Part shown: one piece after another, positions 1,583-12,342 of the stretch
How positions within the stretch are numbered: position 1 is the stretch's first letter
How the letters are laid out: every line of letters starts with the position of its first letter
Assembly: GCA_017882455.1 (NCBI GenBank)
Contig: JADGPL010000015.1
Coordinates: 1 to 64,000, forward strand
DNA from: Solirubrobacteraceae bacterium
GTDB taxonomy: Bacteria > Actinomycetota > Thermoleophilia > Solirubrobacterales > Solirubrobacteraceae
DNA: 64,000 nt
Reading direction: 5' to 3'
Notes under the pieces: model-generated
The model's database searches: none
What the model was told of the DNA's origin: nothing
What the model saw: only the letters and a program-made list of their open reading frames with translations
Translations under genes and position numbers: made by a program

Positions 1583-1963
1583 TCAGGCGGGCCAGGCGCG
1601 ATCGCCGGTAACCGCGCCGCGCACGACCTTCAGGTTCAGCAGGGCGCACTTGCGCCGCGTCGCCGAGACGGGGATGCCGAGCAGGTCGATCATCCAGTCG
1701 GCGTCGAGCTCTGCGACGTCTTTCAGGCTCATTCCCTTCAGCTCCTCCGAGGCGATCGAGGCCGCGGCCTGGGAGATCGCGCAACCGTGGCCGTGGAAGC
1801 GGAGATCCTCGATGCGACCGTCACGCACGCGGATGTGCACGCCGAGCTCATCGCCGCAGAGCGGGTTGTGCTCGAGCGCCTCGAGGTCGTGGGGGTCGAG
1901 CTCACCGAAGTTCTTGGGGCGCTTGTAGTGCTCGAGGATGTAGTCGCGGTAGAGGTCGTCCAT
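1583..1963 (-). CDS. sufU: SufU-type iron-sulfur cluster assembly scaffold / sulfur acceptor
   Basis: A 126-residue NifU/IscU-fold protein. The three conserved cysteines are visible in NPLCGDE (about 36), GHGCAIS (about 61) and RRKCALL (about 105). In Gram-positive Suf systems SufU is the zinc-bound sulfurtransferase that accepts persulfide from SufS. It starts three bases after the sufS stop codon, as the last gene of the rrf2-sufC-sufD-sufS-sufU operon. Length and motif spacing are normal for SufU. Confidence 0.93.
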   Translation of the reverse strand: MDDLYRDYILEHYKRPKNFGELDPHDLEALEHNPLCGDELGVHIRVRDGRIEDLRFHGHGCAISQAAASIASEELKGMSLKDVAELDADWMIDLLGIPVSATRRKCALLNLKVVRGAVTGDRAWPA

Positions 1964-1966
1964 GGT

Positions 1967-3205
1967 TCAGAGTCCGAAGACCTCGCGTCCGGCGTTCAGC
2001 GCGCTGACGAGGGCATCGATGTCGGAGGCTTCGTTGTAGACGCCGACCGAGGCGCGTGCCGTGGCGCCGACGCCGAGGCAGCGCATCAAGGGCTGGGCGC
2101 AGTGGTGTCCCGCGCGGATGCAGACCCCGCCGCGATCGGCCAGCTCGGCGACGTCGTGGGGGTGGATGCCCTCGAGCGTGAAGGAGGCCAGGGCGCCGCG
2201 GTGCTCGGCCTCGGGCGGTCCCACCACACGCAGGCCCGGGACCTCGACGAGCCGCTCGAGCATGTAGGCGGTCAGAGCGCGCTCGTGGGCGCGCACGTTC
2301 TCCATGCCGAGGCCCGACAGATACTCGACGGCGACGCCGAGGCCGACGGCCTCGGCGATCGGCGGGGTCCCGGCCTCGAACTTGTAGGGCAGCTCGTTCC
2401 AGCTCGCCGACTGGAAGTCGACCGAGGCGATCATGTCGCCACCCGTCAGGAAGGGCTCCATCTGCTCGAGCAGCTCGCGGCGCCCGTGCAGCACGCCGAC
2501 TCCTGTGGGCCCGAGCGCCTTGTGGCCCGTCCACGCATAGAAGTCCGCCCCGAGGGAGCCCAGATCGACCCCCATCTGCGGCACGGCCTGGGCTCCGTCG
2601 ACGAGCGAGATGGCTCCGGCGGCGCGGATGCGCCGAGTCATCTCCGCCACCGGGTTGATCGTGCCGAGGACGTTTGAGACGTGGGCGAAGGCGACGATGC
2701 GCACGTCGCCGCGAGCCAGCTCGGCGTCGAGTGCCTCCAGCGAGAGCTCACCCCGCTCGTCGACCTCGAGGTAGCGCAGGGTGGCTCCCCGCTCGCGGCA
2801 GAGCACCTGCCAGGGAACGATGTTCGCGTGGTGCTCCATCTGGGTGATCAGCACGGCATCGCCGGCGCCCACGTTGGCGCGGCCCCAGGAGTAGGCGATC
2901 AGGTTGATGGCCTCGGTGACGTTCTTTGTGAAGATCGTCGTCTCCGCTGCAGCGCCCACAAAGGCTGCGACCTTTTGGCGCGCTTCCTCGTAGGCCGCGT
3001 CGGCCTCCTGGGCAAGGGCATAGACGCCACGATGCACGTTCGCGTTATGGCTCTGCAGATGATCTGCGAGCGCGTCGATCACAACCTGGGGCTTCTGCGA
3101 CGTTGCCCCCGAATCGAGGTAGATCAGCTCGCGCCCGTCGAAGCGGCGCGCGAAGATCGGGAAGTCGGCCCTTACCTCAAGCGTTCTCTCAGCGACTGGT
3201 GGCAT
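1967..3205 (-). CDS. sufS: cysteine desulfurase SufS
   Basis: A 412-residue fold-type I PLP enzyme that takes sulfur from cysteine as an enzyme persulfide for cluster assembly. The PLP lysine lies in GHKALGPTGVG (about residue 235) and the catalytic cysteine in RAGHHCAQPLM (near 370), the group II (SufS) arrangement. Its ATG overlaps the end of sufD by 17 bases, so the two are translationally coupled. The partner acceptor SufU follows immediately. Confidence 0.95.
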   Translation of the reverse strand: MPPVAERTLEVRADFPIFARRFDGRELIYLDSGATSQKPQVVIDALADHLQSHNANVHRGVYALAQEADAAYEEARQKVAAFVGAAAETTIFTKNVTEAINLIAYSWGRANVGAGDAVLITQMEHHANIVPWQVLCRERGATLRYLEVDERGELSLEALDAELARGDVRIVAFAHVSNVLGTINPVAEMTRRIRAAGAISLVDGAQAVPQMGVDLGSLGADFYAWTGHKALGPTGVGVLHGRRELLEQMEPFLTGGDMIASVDFQSASWNELPYKFEAGTPPIAEAVGLGVAVEYLSGLGMENVRAHERALTAYMLERLVEVPGLRVVGPPEAEHRGALASFTLEGIHPHDVAELADRGGVCIRAGHHCAQPLMRCLGVGATARASVGVYNEASDIDALVSALNAGREVFGL

Positions 3206-4598
3206 AGGCCTCGATGTCCTCGCGCGCTGCCGCGAGCTTGGCGGCGACCTTGCTGCGGACGACCTCTTCCATCGCCTCGTCTCCGATCTCTGCGACGAGC
3301 GGCTCGAAGAAGCCCTCGACGATCACCCGCACCGCCGCGGGGCGATCGAGGCCACGAGTCTGCATGTAGTAGATCGCGTTCTCGTCGAGCTCTCCGACGG
3401 TGCCCCCGTGCGAGGCTGAGACGTCGTCGGCGGAGACGAGCACCGAGGGGATCGCGTCGATGCGGGCCTTGGGGGAGAGCATCATCGAGTGGAACTGGAG
3501 GTAGGTGTGCGTCTGCTGGGCGCCAGGGTCGATCTGGATCAGCCCCTCGAAGCTCGCGCGGCTCTCGCCGGTGGCGGCTCCACGCCAATGCACATCGCCG
3601 CCTGAGGGGCCGGTCTCGTGGAGGTCGACGGCGAAGACGTCGAGATGCTCGTGCTCCTCGGTGAAGAGCAGCCCGCGGAAGGCCATGTCCCCGCCCTTCT
3701 CCGACACCGCAAGCTCGAGGTGCTGGCGCACCAGGTGCCCGCCCAGGAGGGCCGGAAGCCAGTGGCAGTAGGCGTCGCGACCGACGCCGACGAAGCGGGT
3801 CGAGACGTCGAAGACCTCGCCCGAGCCCCAGTCCTGCAGCTGCGCCAGGCGGCAGCGGGCGCCGTCCTGGAGGTAGAGCTCAAAGGCGCCGGCGTGCAGC
3901 GCCTGGCCCTCGAAGTCCTCGGCCAGGTCGTACTCGTGTACGCGGAACTCGCTGTTGGCGCCGCCGAGCACCAGCGTGCGCCCGAACTGGGCGACCCCGG
4001 GACGCTCGATCGCGTAGACGATCTCGAAGGGCTCTGAGACCGTGACGCCGGCGGGCACATGCAAGAAGGCGCCGGCGCGCCAGAACGCCGCGTTGGCGGC
4101 CTCGAGCTTGTGCCGATCGATCGTCAGGCGCTTGGAGTACCAGGGGCCGACGAGCTCGGGGTGATCACGGAAGGCGTCCTCGAGCGAGCAGAGGATCACG
4201 CCGCGCTCGGCGAGGCCCGGATCGAGCTCGAGGTGCACCGTCTCTCCGGCGCTCTGCACGATGCGCCCGGCCCGCGGACCATCGGGGATCGTGCGGCTCA
4301 CGACCTCGGGCACGCCCTCGGCGCTCGCGGCCGGGTCGAGCGCATCGAGGTCGAGACTCTGAAGGCTCGTCGTCCAGAACCCCGAGCGCCGCCAGATCGG
4401 AAGCTCGGAGGCCTCGTACACATCGAGTGCCGCGGCACGCAGCTGCGCAAGCGTGCGCCCGTCGCCTGCCCCGGCGCCGGCGAGCGCGTGATAGAGGCTC
4501 GCCTCGCGGTGGCGTCCGGCCTTCACCTGGACCGGCGCGGCGCCGTTTGTAGCGCCCGGCAGTGTGTTCGCCGCGTCCTGCTCAGGCACCTTCGTCAC
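3189..4598 (-). CDS. sufD: SufD-type component of the SufBCD scaffold complex
   Basis: About 469 residues from GTG 4598. An ATG at 4643 is also in frame but would overlap sufC by 62 bases, so the inner start is preferred. The protein is a SufB/SufD-family beta-helix. Its C-terminal region carries SADDVSASHGGTVGEL, the SufD-like SHG motif, and lacks the glutamate-containing VEHEATTS motif typical of SufB, so I call it SufD. SufD and SufB form the scaffold with the ATPase SufC. No sufB accompanies it here; it is either encoded elsewhere or replaced by this protein. The gene overlaps both sufC and sufS. Confidence 0.87.
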   Translation of the reverse strand: MTKVPEQDAANTLPGATNGAAPVQVKAGRHREASLYHALAGAGAGDGRTLAQLRAAALDVYEASELPIWRRSGFWTTSLQSLDLDALDPAASAEGVPEVVSRTIPDGPRAGRIVQSAGETVHLELDPGLAERGVILCSLEDAFRDHPELVGPWYSKRLTIDRHKLEAANAAFWRAGAFLHVPAGVTVSEPFEIVYAIERPGVAQFGRTLVLGGANSEFRVHEYDLAEDFEGQALHAGAFELYLQDGARCRLAQLQDWGSGEVFDVSTRFVGVGRDAYCHWLPALLGGHLVRQHLELAVSEKGGDMAFRGLLFTEEHEHLDVFAVDLHETGPSGGDVHWRGAATGESRASFEGLIQIDPGAQQTHTYLQFHSMMLSPKARIDAIPSVLVSADDVSASHGGTVGELDENAIYYMQTRGLDRPAAVRVIVEGFFEPLVAEIGDEAMEEVVRSKVAAKLAAAREDIEAYATSR

Positions 4599-5361
4599 CG
4601 GCTGCGGCGGCGCTCGCGCCAACCTCCTGGCGAATCTGGTCATAGCCCTCGCGCTCGAGGCGCTCGACCAGCTCGACGCCGCCCTCGAGCACGATCCGCC
4701 CCTCCATCAGGATGTGCACGAACTCGGGCTTCACGTAGTGCAGGATGCGCTGGTAGTGGGTGATGATCAGGGCGCCGAGGCCCTGCTCGTCGTGCAGCTT
4801 CTGCACGCCCTCGGCGACGGTACGCAGGGCGTCGATGTCGAGGCCGGAGTCGGTCTCGTCGAGGATCGCGATGTCGGGGGCGAGCATCGCCATCTGCAGG
4901 ATCTCCGCGCGCTTCTTCTCACCGCCGGAGAAGCCATCGTTGAGATGGCGCGAGGTGAAGGCTTTGTCGACGTCGAGCAGCTCGATCGCGTGCTGGAGCT
5001 GGGTGCGGAACTCCTTGACCTGGATCGGCTCATCGCGCTTGGCGTTGATCGCCATGCGCAGGAAGTTCGCGACCGAGACGCCCGGGATCGAGACGGGGTA
5101 CTGGAAGGCCAGGAACAGCCCGGCCTTGGCGCGCTCGTGCGGTTCCTGCTCAGTGATGTCCTCGCCCTTGAAGGTGATCGAGCCCTGGGTGATTTCATAG
5201 GAGGGGTGCCCGAGCAGGGTGTTGGCGAGCGTCGACTTGCCCGAGCCGTTGGGCCCCATCAGGGCATGGATCTCGCCGCGGTTGATCTCGAGGTCGACGC
5301 CGCGCAGGATCTCGCGGTCCTCGGTGCGGACGTGCAGGTCTGTGATCTCTAGGTCGGCCAT
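4582..5361 (-). CDS. sufC: Fe-S cluster assembly ATPase SufC
   Basis: A 259-residue ABC-type ATPase. Walker A is GPNGSGKST (about residue 36), the signature is FSGGEKKRAEI (about 145) and Walker B runs into DETDSGLDIDAL. These are diagnostic of SufC, the soluble ATPase that remodels the SufBD scaffold; there is no transport role. It is the first structural gene after the Rrf2 regulator, with a nine-base gap. Confidence 0.96.
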   Translation of the reverse strand: MADLEITDLHVRTEDREILRGVDLEINRGEIHALMGPNGSGKSTLANTLLGHPSYEITQGSITFKGEDITEQEPHERAKAGLFLAFQYPVSIPGVSVANFLRMAINAKRDEPIQVKEFRTQLQHAIELLDVDKAFTSRHLNDGFSGGEKKRAEILQMAMLAPDIAILDETDSGLDIDALRTVAEGVQKLHDEQGLGALIITHYQRILHYVKPEFVHILMEGRIVLEGGVELVERLEREGYDQIRQEVGASAAAAGDEGA

Positions 5362-5856: not shown

Positions 5857-5863
5857 CGCAAGA

Positions 5864-5886
5864 TTTCCTACCTGCGAGCTAGGATA
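5864..5886. promoter_or_regulatory. candidate Rrf2 operator upstream of the suf operon
   Basis: An imperfect inverted repeat TTTCCTA-N9-TAGGATA with 6 of 7 arm positions symmetric, squeezed between the stop of the SCO1-like gene and the rrf2 start. Its position would let a dimeric Rrf2 protein block suf transcription or initiation. The site is seen directly; the binding partner is inferred. Confidence 0.5.
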
Positions 5887-6516
5887 TCAGTCGTTCTGCA
5901 GCTTCCCGATGTCGTGGGAGAGGGCTTCCGGTGTCAGCTGTTCGGATTGGAAGAGCACGCGCTCCTGCCCCTGGCGGTCGAGCAGCAGCACCGAGGCGTA
6001 GCGCGCGAAGCGTTCCCGGCCCGCGCTCGCCGGTGTGACCCCGTAGGCGCGCCAGATACGGCGCAGCTGCGAGAGCGACCCCGTCAGGTAGCGCACGCGA
6101 CCGCTCAGCGAGACCGCGGAGAGGAAGCGGCGGACGTTGGCCGGCGTGTCCGCGTGAGGGTCGGCGCTCACGATCAGCACCGGGACGGGCTTGGGGAGTT
6201 CGTCGAGCGCCCCGCGTATCTGCTGGGCGATGACCACGCAAGGGGCCCCGCATCCTGTGTAGAGGAACGTCAGCACCGTCACTCCTCCGCGCGATGCTGC
6301 CAGGGAGACCCGCTGTCCGCCCTGGTCGGTGAGCGCGAAGCCGGGGGCCAGCCTGCCGGTGGGGAGCCCCGCGCCGTCGAAGCCCGTGCCCGCCGAGGCG
6401 GTGAGGGTCTTTGAGGATGAGCCGCCCGGAGCGCCGCCGATCGCGATCGCGAGGATCAGGGCCACCAGGAGCACCGCGGAGAGGGCCGGAAGCACGATCC
6501 GGGGTCGTGGACGCAT
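5887..6516 (-). CDS. SCO1/SenC-like membrane-anchored thioredoxin-fold protein lacking the copper-ligand histidine
   Basis: A 209-residue protein with an N-terminal membrane anchor (about residues 8-28) and a SCO1/SenC-like thioredoxin fold. The family CxxxC motif is present as TGCGAPC (about 90-95), and TPANVRRFL is typical. SCO proteins deliver copper to cytochrome oxidase CuA using two cysteines and a distal histidine (usually DHSA). Here that position reads RYASVLLLD with no histidine, which argues for a thiol-redox rather than a copper-delivery role. The ATG follows a -10-like TAGGGT by seven bases (leaderless). It lies upstream of rrf2 on the same strand, 30 bases away. Confidence 0.75.
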   Translation of the reverse strand: MRPRPRIVLPALSAVLLVALILAIAIGGAPGGSSSKTLTASAGTGFDGAGLPTGRLAPGFALTDQGGQRVSLAASRGGVTVLTFLYTGCGAPCVVIAQQIRGALDELPKPVPVLIVSADPHADTPANVRRFLSAVSLSGRVRYLTGSLSQLRRIWRAYGVTPASAGRERFARYASVLLLDRQGQERVLFQSEQLTPEALSHDIGKLQND

Positions 6517-6659: not shown

Positions 6660-7841
6660 ATGAGTCCGTCAGGTGCGGAGCTTCTCCGCCAAGTCAAGAG
6701 CCAGATCGAAGAGGTAGACCCGTCTGAGGTCAAGGAGCTGATCGACGAGGGCGTGGCCATCGTGGACGTGCGCGAGACCGAGGAGTTCGCCGCCGGGCAC
6801 CTTCCCGGCGCCAAGCACGTGCCCAGGAGCTATCTCGAGTCGCGGATCGAGGGCGTGGTCCCCGACCGCTCGACTCAGATCATTCTGTACTGCGCCTCGG
6901 GCAACCGCTCGGCATATGGCGCGCGCACGTTGACCGAGGAGCTCGGCTACGAGCACGTGCGCTCGATGACCGGCGGGATCACCCTGTGGAAGGACCGCGG
7001 CTATGACGTCGTGGTCCCACGTGCGCTCAGCCCGGAGCAGCGCGAGCGCTACTCACGCCATGTGCTGATCCCCGAGATCGGCACCGAGGGCCAGCAGAAG
7101 CTGCTCGACGCCAAGGTGCTGCTGCTCGGCGCCGGCGGCCTCGGCTCGCCCACCGCCCTCTATCTGGCAGCCGCCGGGGTGGGCACGCTGGGCATCGTCG
7201 ACGACGACGTGGTGGACCTCTCCAACCTCCAGCGTCAGGTGATCCACTCCACCCAGCGGATCGGCATCCCCAAGGTCGACTCCGCCGAGGAGTCCATCCA
7301 CGCGCTCAACCCCGACGTCAACGTCGTCAAGTACCAGACGCGGATCGACGCCTCCAACATCATGGAGATCATCGAGGGCTACGACGTGATCGTCGACGGG
7401 GTCGACAACTTCCCCACCCGCTACCTGCTCAACGACGCCACCGTGCGCCTGAAGATCCCCGTCGTCTCCGCCTCGATCCTCGGCTTCGACGGGCAGTTGT
7501 CGGTGTTCAAGCCCTACGAGGGCCCATGCTACCGCTGCCTCTTCCGCGAGCCGCCGCCGGCCGAGCTGGCGCCGTCCTGCGGCGCCAACGGCGTACTCGG
7601 CGTGCTCCCCGGCACGATGGGGCTGCTGCAGGCCACCGAGGTCGTCAAGCTCGTGCTGAACATCGGCGAGCCCGCGATCGGACGGCTGCTCCTCTACGAC
7701 GCCCTCGGGGCGACGCTGACCGAGGTGAAGGTCCACCGTGACCCCGACTGCCCGATCTGCTCCCGCGATCCCGAGGACATCGGCGACGAGGAGATGGGCG
7801 TGTTCCCCGATTACGAGGCGTTCTGCGCCGCGGCCGGATAG
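6660..7841 (+). CDS. rhodanese-ThiF/MoeB fusion: sulfur-carrier adenylyl- and sulfurtransferase (MoeZ-like)
   Basis: 393 residues. An N-terminal rhodanese domain (about 18-118, active-site loop YCASGNRS) is followed by a ThiF/MoeB/E1-like adenylylation domain (about 128-390) with GAGGLGSP at about 157, CYRC and CPIC zinc-type pairs, and a SCG motif. Such enzymes adenylate the C-terminal glycine of a ubiquitin-like sulfur carrier and convert it to a thiocarboxylate. The domain order is the reverse of MoeZ/Uba4, where rhodanese is C-terminal. The CysO carrier follows after 26 bases, which makes it the likely substrate. Function in cysteine synthesis is inferred from the CysM and Mec genes further on. 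Confidence 0.9.
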   Translation: MSPSGAELLRQVKSQIEEVDPSEVKELIDEGVAIVDVRETEEFAAGHLPGAKHVPRSYLESRIEGVVPDRSTQIILYCASGNRSAYGARTLTEELGYEHVRSMTGGITLWKDRGYDVVVPRALSPEQRERYSRHVLIPEIGTEGQQKLLDAKVLLLGAGGLGSPTALYLAAAGVGTLGIVDDDVVDLSNLQRQVIHSTQRIGIPKVDSAEESIHALNPDVNVVKYQTRIDASNIMEIIEGYDVIVDGVDNFPTRYLLNDATVRLKIPVVSASILGFDGQLSVFKPYEGPCYRCLFREPPPAELAPSCGANGVLGVLPGTMGLLQATEVVKLVLNIGEPAIGRLLLYDALGATLTEVKVHRDPDCPICSRDPEDIGDEEMGVFPDYEAFCAAAG

Positions 7842-7867
7842 GCTCCGGGCGCGAGGGAACCAGAACG

Positions 7868-8146
7868 ATGGCCACGATCAAGATCCCACCGGTGCTGCGC
7901 GCGTCTGTCGGCGGCGAGAAGCTCCTGAGCGCCTCCGGCGGGAACGTCGGCGAGGTGCTGCGTGACCTCGCCACCAACCATCCCGCCACCGAGAGCCAGC
8001 TGTTCTCCTCCGAGGGCGAGCTCAACCGCTACGTGAACGTGTACCTGAACGACGAGGATGTCCGCGTCCTCGACGGGCTCGACACCACGGTCGGCGAGAG
8101 CGACACGCTGGTCATCCTGCCGGCCATGGCCGGCGGGGCTGGTTAG
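7868..8146 (+). CDS. cysO: CysO-like ubiquitin-fold sulfur carrier with two residues after the GG motif
   Basis: A 92-residue MoaD/ThiS/CysO-family beta-grasp protein (NVYLNDEDVR, then VGESDTLVILPAMAGG near the end). The C-terminus reads AGGAG, so two residues follow the functional diglycine. Mycobacterial CysO ends at GG and needs no trimming. This carrier would need removal of Ala-Gly before adenylylation, a job a JAMM protease could do, and one (Mec) is encoded at 11929. It is cotranscribed with its probable activating enzyme. Confidence 0.88.
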   Translation: MATIKIPPVLRASVGGEKLLSASGGNVGEVLRDLATNHPATESQLFSSEGELNRYVNVYLNDEDVRVLDGLDTTVGESDTLVILPAMAGGAG

Positions 8147-10919: not shown

Positions 10920-11891
10920 ATGGCGGCGGAGCGGCTCAGAAACCGGCCCTGCGGAGGTCGCTATGGCGACATCGTGCAGTCGATCGGCAACACGCCGCTG
11001 GTCGAGCTGCCGAACCTCTCGCCCAAGCCCGGCGTGCGCATCTGGGCCAAGCTCGAGTCGCGCAACCCCACCGGCTCTGTCAAGGATCGCGTGGCCCGTG
11101 CGTTGATCGAGGACGCGGAGGAGAAAGGCGCGATCGCGCCGGGACAGACCATCCTGGAACCGACCTCCGGCAACACGGGCATCTCGCTGGCGCTGATCTG
11201 CAAACTCAAGGGCTACCGGCTGAAGGTGGTCATGCCCGAGAACGTCACGCCCGAGCGCACCCAGCTGCTGAGCATGTACGGCGCCGAGATCGTCTACTCG
11301 CCCGGCGATCAGGGCTCCAATGGCGCAGTGGCCATGGCGCTCGAGATGGCCTCCGCGGACCCCTCCTGCTACATGCCCTACCAGTACGGAAACCAGGCCA
11401 ACCCCAATGCCCACTACAACGGCACCGCGGTGGAGATCCTGGAAGAGCTCGACGAGGTCGCCGCGTTCGTGGCCGGGCTGGGGACGGGCGGCACGCTGAT
11501 GGGCAACGGTCGAAGGCTGAAGGAGACGTTCGGCGACGCCGTCAAGATCGTCGCCGCCGAGCCCATGCAGGGCGAGCCCGTGCAGGGCCTGCGCTCGCTG
11601 GACGACGGCTTCATCCCGCCGATCATCGACATCTCCCTGCTCGACCGCAAGATCTTCGTGACCAACCACGACGCGATCGTGTGGACGCGCAAGCTGCTCG
11701 ACGAGGAGGGTCTCTTCGCCGGCGTCTCGACCGGCGCGATAGCGAGCATCGCCGTGCGGATCGCCGGCGAGCTGGAGGAGGGCAACGTCGTCTTCGTCGT
11801 CGCCGACGACGGCTGGAAGTACCTGTCGAGCGGCATCTACACGCTGCCGGTCGAGGAGGTCGAGAACCTCGAGTCGACCGTCTGGTGGTGA
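10920..11891 (+). CDS. cysM: O-phosphoserine-type cysteine synthase CysM
   Basis: A 323-residue fold-type II PLP enzyme. The PLP lysine is in NPTGSVKDR (about residue 53), the substrate loop is EPTSGNTG and the phosphate-binding loop is GLGTGGT. An arginine in QGLRSLDDGF matches the position used by mycobacterial CysM to bind O-phosphoserine. CysM takes sulfur from CysO thiocarboxylate to make a CysO-cysteine adduct. Mec, which releases the cysteine, follows 37 bases on, as in the mycobacterial cluster. An ordinary OAS sulfhydrylase is less likely given this context. Confidence 0.9.
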   Translation: MAAERLRNRPCGGRYGDIVQSIGNTPLVELPNLSPKPGVRIWAKLESRNPTGSVKDRVARALIEDAEEKGAIAPGQTILEPTSGNTGISLALICKLKGYRLKVVMPENVTPERTQLLSMYGAEIVYSPGDQGSNGAVAMALEMASADPSCYMPYQYGNQANPNAHYNGTAVEILEELDEVAAFVAGLGTGGTLMGNGRRLKETFGDAVKIVAAEPMQGEPVQGLRSLDDGFIPPIIDISLLDRKIFVTNHDAIVWTRKLLDEEGLFAGVSTGAIASIAVRIAGELEEGNVVFVVADDGWKYLSSGIYTLPVEEVENLESTVWW

Positions 11892-11928
11892 GCGCGTCAG
11901 AGCGCTCGGGCGCCAGCCGCCGCCGCTG

Positions 11929-12342
11929 ATGATCATCGCCGCTGCCCTGCTGGAGGACATCGTCGCCCACGCCCGCGAGGAGTACGACGCCGAGTGCTGC
12001 GGCCTGCTCGCCTACGCATCGCTCGAGCCCGACGGCAGGGGAGACGTGCGCGCCGTTCATCGCGCCACCAACATCTTCGCCAGCCGCAAGCGCTTCGAGA
12101 TCGACGGCAAAGAGGTCCTGACGACGATGGACGAGTTCGAGGGCGAGGGCTGGGAGCTGGGCGCGATCTATCACTCCCACACCCACACCGCCCCATACCC
12201 CTCGCAGACCGACATCAACTTCGCGGCCAACTGGCCCGGCCTGGAGTGGGTGATCGTGGGCCTGGCCGGCGAGGAGCCGGAGATCCGCTGCTACCTGATC
12301 GACGCCGGCGAGGTGCGGGAGGTCGCACTCCAGGTGCGCTGA
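11929..12342 (+). CDS. mec: Mec-type JAMM/MPN+ zinc metallohydrolase
   Basis: 137 residues. The JAMM zinc motif is complete: a glutamate near residue 23, then HSHTHTAPYPSQTD (HxHx7SxxD, about 84-97). In actinobacteria Mec hydrolyses the CysO-cysteine adduct to free cysteine and regenerate CysO. Here the carrier has two residues past GG, so Mec may also trim the precursor, as QbsD does for QbsE. The stop codon overlaps the next ATG by one base. Confidence 0.88.
   Translation: MIIAAALLEDIVAHAREEYDAECCGLLAYASLEPDGRGDVRAVHRATNIFASRKRFEIDGKEVLTTMDEFEGEGWELGAIYHSHTHTAPYPSQTDINFAANWPGLEWVIVGLAGEEPEIRCYLIDAGEVREVALQVR

What the first reader, a model, noticed from the sequence alone, without database searches (positions are those of the whole stretch)
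5864..5886. A symmetric site sits directly before the suf regulator
TTTCCTA-N9-TAGGATA (6 of 7 arm positions symmetric) fills the 30-base gap upstream of an Rrf2 protein that has three cysteines. This looks like an autoregulatory operator for a cluster-sensing repressor of a suf operon, with arms that do not match the IscR sites I know.
Basis: partly seen in the sequence, partly recalled or inferred. Interest (0 to 1): 0.5.

Follow-up and report, generated by a model that had tools for sequence, protein, structure and literature searches.

The report
Suf operon operator for Rrf2 repressor
A short mirror-image DNA site in front of the genes that build iron-sulfur clusters is kept across a whole order of soil bacteria and also sits before a second, separate gene of the same pathway, so it very probably is where their own regulator protein binds to switch the pathway down.

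Summary
The site is real and exactly where described. It fills the 30-base gap between a SCO1-like gene and rrf2, first gene of rrf2-sufC-sufD-like-sufS-sufU, in a Solirubrobacterales genome. Relatives settle its status. A matrix built from 90 rrf2 upstream regions finds the site in all 90, and in 38 of 38 held-out ones. Arms hold 1.4 bits per column, flanks 0.04. A few genomes have it 16-67 nt from the start codon, so it is no ribosome-binding artefact. The same matrix finds it before the separately encoded sufB in 33 of 35 genomes of the near group, the window's own included. One correction: the register is that of IscR type 1 operators (YYGACT-N5-AGTCRR). This genome has CCTAGC/CCTACC arms; relatives show CCGACC, CCGACT and, before some sufB genes, perfect GACT-N5-AGTC. 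One arm or the other carries a TANNNT -10-like hexamer in 89 of 90 sites, so repression by covering the promoter is likely. The regulator keeps three cysteines and Glu8, but has Lys/Arg where IscR has its ligand histidine. Binding, cluster and repression remain inferred. New member of a known kind.

The parts
5862..5886 (-). operator: 25-base dyad site TATCCTAGCTCGCAGGTAGGAAATC (centre near 5875)
   Evidence: sequence; matrix score 34.5 with the order matrix (41.9 with the genus matrix), only site in the window
5881..5886 (-). putative -10 hexamer TATCCT (TANNNT) inside the left arm; TG at 5888-5889 gives an extended -10 (TGATATCCT), supplied by the TGA stop of the upstream gene
   Evidence: sequence; TANNNT in an arm in 89 of 90 sites; TG before the left hexamer in 17 of 25 left-only sites; inference from the mycobacterial -10 (PMC3898074)
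5371..5856 (-). rrf2: Rrf2-family regulator, 161 aa, C92, C103, C113, E8, K116
4582..5361 (-). sufC, ATPase of Fe-S assembly
   Evidence: TIGR01978 350.7 bits, over cut-off
3189..4643 (-). sufD-like (SUFBD core); start codon uncertain
   Evidence: TIGR01981 190.3 bits, under its 222 cut-off; PF01458 over cut-off
1967..3205 (-). sufS, cysteine desulfurase
   Evidence: TIGR01979 over cut-off
1583..1963 (-). sufU-like scaffold/sulfur transfer protein
   Evidence: TIGR01994 90.2 bits, cut-off 92.5; PF01592 over cut-off
5887..6516 (-). SCO1/SenC-like gene whose stop codon abuts the site; upstream neighbour, not shown to belong to the operon
   Evidence: PF02630

Best explanation
The dyad is the operator of the Rrf2 protein whose gene starts 5 bases downstream of the 25-mer. 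A dimer of the regulator, most likely the cluster-loaded form, binds the two CCTA(C/G)C-type half-sites, 13 bases apart from CC to GG. It thereby covers the -10 region and start point of the rrf2-sufCDSU promoter and, through a second and weaker asymmetric copy, of the separate sufB promoter. When clusters run short the regulator is not loaded, the site is released, and both suf units rise. Shown here: the site, its conservation, its promoter-like position, its recurrence before sufB, and the invariant cysteines. Inferred: binding by this protein, the cluster as signal, repression as the sign.
For: Matrix from 90 relatives: 90 of 90 hit, weakest 12.6 against a maximum of 10.2 in 1,800 shuffles, leave-one-out same place 90 of 90 and above the maximum in 89 of 90. 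Held-out rrf2 loci: 31 of 31 named records and 7 of 7 further genomes. Arms 1.40 bits per column, spacer 0.29, upstream flank 0.04. Six of 90 sites lie 16-67 nt from the start codon, so the site is not tied to translation. sufB upstream: 33 of 35 near-type genomes above the maximum (10.3) of 1,400 shuffles; far-type 4 of 48, all 4 among the 8 without an adjacent upstream open frame and none among the 40 with one. Own genome: C47:41991-42015, score 14.5, directly after TACAAT. Genus pattern search: apart from one duplicate contig, the only place with 0-1 mismatch that is not before rrf2 is before sufB. Type 1 IscR register is the sole optimum, -7.8 against -22.9 for the next offset. E8, C92, C103, C113, Y41 and E43 are invariant in 90 of 90.
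Against: No binding or expression data. The matrix was seeded by hand from the eye consensus. The sufB copies in the genus are asymmetric (one good half-site, the other GCACAGGAT), and 2 of 35 near-type sufB regions lack a scoring site (L147; L169 shows CCGACT-N5-AGTCAG only by eye). Two more Rrf2 proteins over the Pfam cut-off exist in the genome, and one, without cysteines, has a related palindrome upstream, so which Rrf2 binds which site is not proven. The histidine ligand of IscR is replaced by Lys/Arg in 90 of 90.
Confidence: 0.87

Rival explanations
1. The conserved bases are only core promoter plus ribosome-binding site (TANNNT and GGTAGG) and the dyad is a by-product.
For: One arm or the other carries TANNNT in 89 of 90 sites; in most genomes the right arm is 6-11 nt from the start codon.
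Against: The arm without TANNNT stays conserved (CC at 88 and 85 of 90, GG at 90 and 89 of 90). Sites displaced 16-67 nt from the start keep both arms (the right arm is degenerate in L037). At sufB the -10-like TACAAT lies at the edge of the site and the arms are still there.
Confidence: 0.05
2. Another regulator, for instance the cysteine-free Rrf2 paralogue (CymR-like, beside ABC transporter genes), binds here and ties suf to sulfur supply.
For: That paralogue has a related palindrome CCGACC-N5-GATCGG upstream.
Against: The site tracks the three-cysteine rrf2 across the order, and the two palindromes differ at the discriminating bases (TA against GA).
Confidence: 0.08
3. The regulator is an activator, or works from the apo form as E. 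coli IscR does at suf.
For: The CC-N13-GG frame also fits the E. coli type 2 site, which apo-IscR binds; the type 2 score is positive at the centre (2.5), though 0.0 and -0.6 one base to either side.
Against: The sites overlap the predicted -10/start region, not the region upstream of -35; the type 2 core CCxYA is fully met in 0 of 180 arms.
Confidence: 0.1

Closest known systems
IscR of Escherichia coli and Pseudomonas (type 1 sites, autorepression of isc)
   Same: Rrf2 protein, first gene of an Fe-S assembly operon; three cysteines, the first at position 92; E43 and Y41 kept; operator register YY-N13-RR overlapping the promoter (consensus read in passages of PMC3899308).
   Different: Sits on suf, not isc; no His107 equivalent (Lys/Arg); wider cysteine spacing (92/103/113); arms CCTA instead of YYGA in this genus; misses the IscR equivalog cut-off (98.4 of 207.55 bits).
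RisR of Myxococcus xanthus (holo-repressor of isc and suf; sections 6 and 8 and passages of PMC9973013 read)
   Same: Single Rrf2 regulator repressing suf from a GAC-N7-GTC palindrome that overlaps the -10; three cysteines.
   Different: RisR lacks the Ser40/Glu43/Gln44 recognition residues of IscR, whereas Glu43 is invariant here; only suf was examined here; no tree was built, so group membership is open.
IscR of Thermincola potens (PDB 4cic; organism name recalled)
   Same: Closest solved sequence to the family profile (E 2.8e-34); Gram-positive Rrf2 linked to Fe-S assembly (passages of PMC9338935).
   Different: The deposited 4cic sequence aligns without the cysteines of the loop; different operon and phylum; its operators could not be read (paper not held).
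SufR of cyanobacteria and mycobacteria (ArsR-type)
   Same: Fe-S cluster-binding regulator recruited to suf, also in an actinobacterium (passage of PMC9973013).
   Different: Different DNA-binding family; no TIGR02702 match in this genome.

Membership tests
Rrf2 family | Pfam PF02082 / TIGR00738 over curated cut-off | tested here: met
   124.7 bits (cut-off 30) and 126.2 bits (cut-off 73.3)
IscR (equivalog) | TIGR02010 cut-off 207.55 bits | tested here: not met
   98.4 bits
IscR (equivalog) | (Cys)3(His)1 cluster ligands | tested here: not met
   Three Cys in 90 of 90, but the position three after the last Cys is Lys/Arg in 90 of 90
IscR (equivalog) | type 1 operator ATASYYGACTRWWWYAGTCRRSTAT before its own operon | tested here: inconclusive
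   Register is the sole optimum, but the full six-base core is met in 9 of 180 arms and five of six in 38; absolute score negative
IscR (equivalog) | gene heads an isc operon | tested here: not met
   Followed by sufC, sufD-like, sufS, sufU
CymR | NF047409 cut-off 195 bits | tested here: not met
   114 bits
RisR-type suf/isc repressor | palindrome over the -10 of the suf promoter | tested here: inconclusive
   TANNNT inside an arm in 89 of 90 sites, but the -10 is a prediction
RisR-type suf/isc repressor | cluster-loaded form represses | not testable with these tools
   needs purified protein and expression data
SufR (ArsR-type) | TIGR02702 match | tested here: not met
   No match in the genome

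The most novel reading that the evidence does not exclude
Operator and promoter are one object: each arm of the dyad can serve as the -10, and over evolution the promoter has moved from one arm to the other under the same repressor. Left-arm users would make mRNA with a leader of about 17 nt and an SD-like GGTAGG; right-arm users, with 6-11 nt from -10 to start codon, would make leaderless mRNA. Repressor footprint and autoregulation stay unchanged while the translation mode of the regulator switches.
Probability: 0.35. Interest if true: 0.55.

Novelty: new member of a known kind. Interest (0 to 1): 0.42.

Why it matters
It gives a concrete, testable operator and a two-unit regulon (rrf2-sufCDSU and sufB) for Fe-S homeostasis in Solirubrobacterales, an order known mostly from metagenomes, for which I found no published Rrf2 work. 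The graded series of arms from CCTA to CCGACT in orthologues with invariant Glu43 offers a natural set for asking how Rrf2 proteins read their half-sites. The alternation of the -10 between arms, if real, would show how a promoter can move without losing its repressor.

Tried and rejected
Shine-Dalgarno artefact: rejected, because six of 90 sites lie 16-67 nt upstream. Common motif in unrelated gaps: rejected; the loosest pattern (3 mismatches) gives 11 matches in the genome against 16 for the control, so only near-perfect matches mean anything. Looser genus scan: besides rrf2 and sufB sites it returns scattered hits at about the control rate; a recurring ATTCCGAGT...GTCGGAAT palindrome stands near a small protein without evident link to Fe-S, and one hit lies before an ABC substrate-binding protein. 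Recognition-helix residues against operator bases: trends that may simply follow the phylogeny, so no claim. ArsR-type SufR as the regulator: none found. Literature search for GTAGGA with IscR was useless, since 'iscr' matched inside 'discrimination'. No fold prediction was run: family membership is clear from profiles. The TANNNT test (Fisher p 3.5e-13) is not corrected for phylogeny and is given as a description.

Full report
Observation. The dyad is at 5864-5886 as written and fills the 30 bases between the stop of a SCO1-like gene and the ATG of rrf2. Downstream on the same strand come sufC, a SufD-like protein, sufS and a SufU-like protein. There is no second match in the window with up to 3 mismatches and none in the 3.3-Mb genome with 0-1 mismatch to the stricter dyad.

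Organism. The nearest named records carrying the gene are Solirubrobacterales / Solirubrobacteraceae metagenome-assembled genomes; one deviating record title (Chlamydiae, L256) stands among them and is probably a mislabelled bin. A phylum-wide search with 246 genomes finds the family at E below 1e-60 only in the 7 genomes of the window's own order that it drew (own genome included); 22 others reach 1e-31 to 1e-38 with more distant Rrf2 proteins.

Conservation. rrf2 or a paralogue was found in 101 of 101 relatives. I took the 200 bases before rrf2 in 90 genomes and built a 25-column matrix from a seed set by eye. All 90 have the site; the weakest scores 12.6, the median 30.1, and the best of 1,800 dinucleotide shuffles 10.2; leaving each genome out finds the same place in 90 of 90 and exceeds the shuffles in 89 of 90. 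Held-out tests: 31 of 31 non-duplicate named loci and 7 of 7 further genomes. Mean information is 1.40 bits per column in the arms, 0.29 in the spacer, 0.04 in the upstream flank.

Second target. A 24-genome pattern search in the genus returned, with 0-1 mismatch, the rrf2 site (twice in one genome, on what looks like a duplicate contig) and one more place, in G013: it lies 26 bases before sufB. SufB, encoded apart from the window operon, was then located in 90 of 101 relatives. The matrix, trained on rrf2 sites only, exceeds the maximum of 1,400 shuffles (10.3) before sufB in 33 of 35 genomes of the near group (SufB about 78% identical or more); L147 and L169 fail. In the far group (about 50-55% identical SufB) it does so in 4 of 48. 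Of these 48, 40 have a same-strand open frame ending within 40 nt of sufB, as in an operon, and none of the 40 has a site; the 4 sites fall among the 8 others. Long open frames are common by chance at this G+C, so that split is a rough one. In the window's own genome the sufB copy is at C47:41991-42015, score 14.5, directly after TACAAT. The genus copies are asymmetric: one full half-site, the other GCACAGGAT.

What the arms are. Reading inwards, the left arm is CC, T or G (49 and 41 of 90), A, C or G, C or T; the right arm is nearly always CCTA with C or G. The printed IscR type 1 consensus, ATASYYGACTRWWWYAGTCRRSTAT (PMC3899308, passages read), fits best exactly at the dyad centre (-7.8; next best offset -22.9), although the absolute score is poor. 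The type 2 consensus (PMC4055776, passages read) also fits best at the centre, less sharply (2.5; 0.0 and -0.6 one base away), but its core is fully met in 0 of 180 arms. Before sufB in G025 and G051 (L187, L202) the core is GACT-N5-AGTC, the textbook type 1 core. So the window's arms are best seen as a drifted form of a known operator type, not an unrelated one. More distant actinobacterial Rrf2 genes also have matrix hits, for instance L327 (30.8, beside sufC) and L340 (21.4).

Promoter. In mycobacteria a TANNNT -10 lies 7-12 bases before most primary starts, and TGN before it makes an extended -10 (PMC3898074, passages read). Of 90 sites, 25 have TANNNT in the left arm only, 54 in the right only, 10 in both, 1 in neither; the held-out named sites have at least one in 31 of 31. 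Left-arm-only users, this genome included, carry TG before it in 17 of 25. Right-only users have 6-11 nt from hexamer to start codon in 54 of 54, which would give leaderless or nearly leaderless mRNA. That these hexamers are promoters is inference; the Fisher test (3.5e-13) is not corrected for kinship. A bound dimer would cover -10 and start point, as RisR does at its targets (PMC9973013, sections 6 and 8 read).

Regulator. E8, Y41, E43, C92, C103 and C113 are invariant in 90 of 90; position 116, three after the last cysteine, where IscR has its ligand histidine, is Lys or Arg in 90 of 90. A carboxylate at position 8 is a ligand in NsrR (Asp8, abstract of PMC5411485 in the listing) and, as I recall, Glu8 in RsrR, so three Cys plus Glu8 is the likeliest ligand set here. 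The protein misses the cut-offs of the IscR, CymR, RirA and NsrR models and is best described as a Rrf2 suf regulator of its own clade. The genome holds two other Rrf2 proteins over the Pfam cut-off; one, without cysteines, lies among ABC transporter genes and has its own related palindrome. No ArsR-type SufR was found.

Verdict. A biological feature of a familiar sort, well supported: autoregulatory operator of a clade-specific Rrf2 regulator, with sufB as second target. No published account for this group turned up (no paper with Thermoleophilia and Rrf2; two reviews; five papers, none on this by title).

Noticed in passing
window 6660-8146 and 10920-12342: Next to suf lie a rhodanese-ThiF (MoeZ/MoeB-like) protein, a ThiS-like sulfur carrier, a PALP-family cysteine-synthase-like enzyme and a JAB-domain protein: together they resemble the actinobacterial CysO-CysM-Mec route to cysteine (recalled), so sulfur supply and Fe-S assembly are neighbours.
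   Followed up: partly
L137 4103-4561 (G000:C21): A Rrf2 paralogue without any cysteine among ABC transporter genes, with palindrome ATCCCGACCGCTCAGATCGGATTTA roughly 100-150 nt upstream; probably a CymR-like sulfur regulator with its own operator.
   Followed up: partly
L359 2001-2023, L360 2001-2023, L363 1350-1372, G014:C207:10018-10040: Near-perfect palindrome ATTCCGAGT...GTCGGAAT in several genomes of the genus, near a gene for a small protein with YHWAIVxGSGESLAQSGSFGSYEEA; regulator unknown.
   Followed up: no
L327 (G142), beside sufC: Outside the order, a Rrf2 gene only 42% identical also sits by sufC and has a strong site (AATCCGACCAGTGAGGTAGGATTTT), with His instead of Glu at position 8.
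   Followed up: no
L256 (CAJCHW010000191.1): A record titled Chlamydiae bacterium carries the Solirubrobacterales rrf2 (65% identical); probably a mislabelled bin.
   Followed up: no
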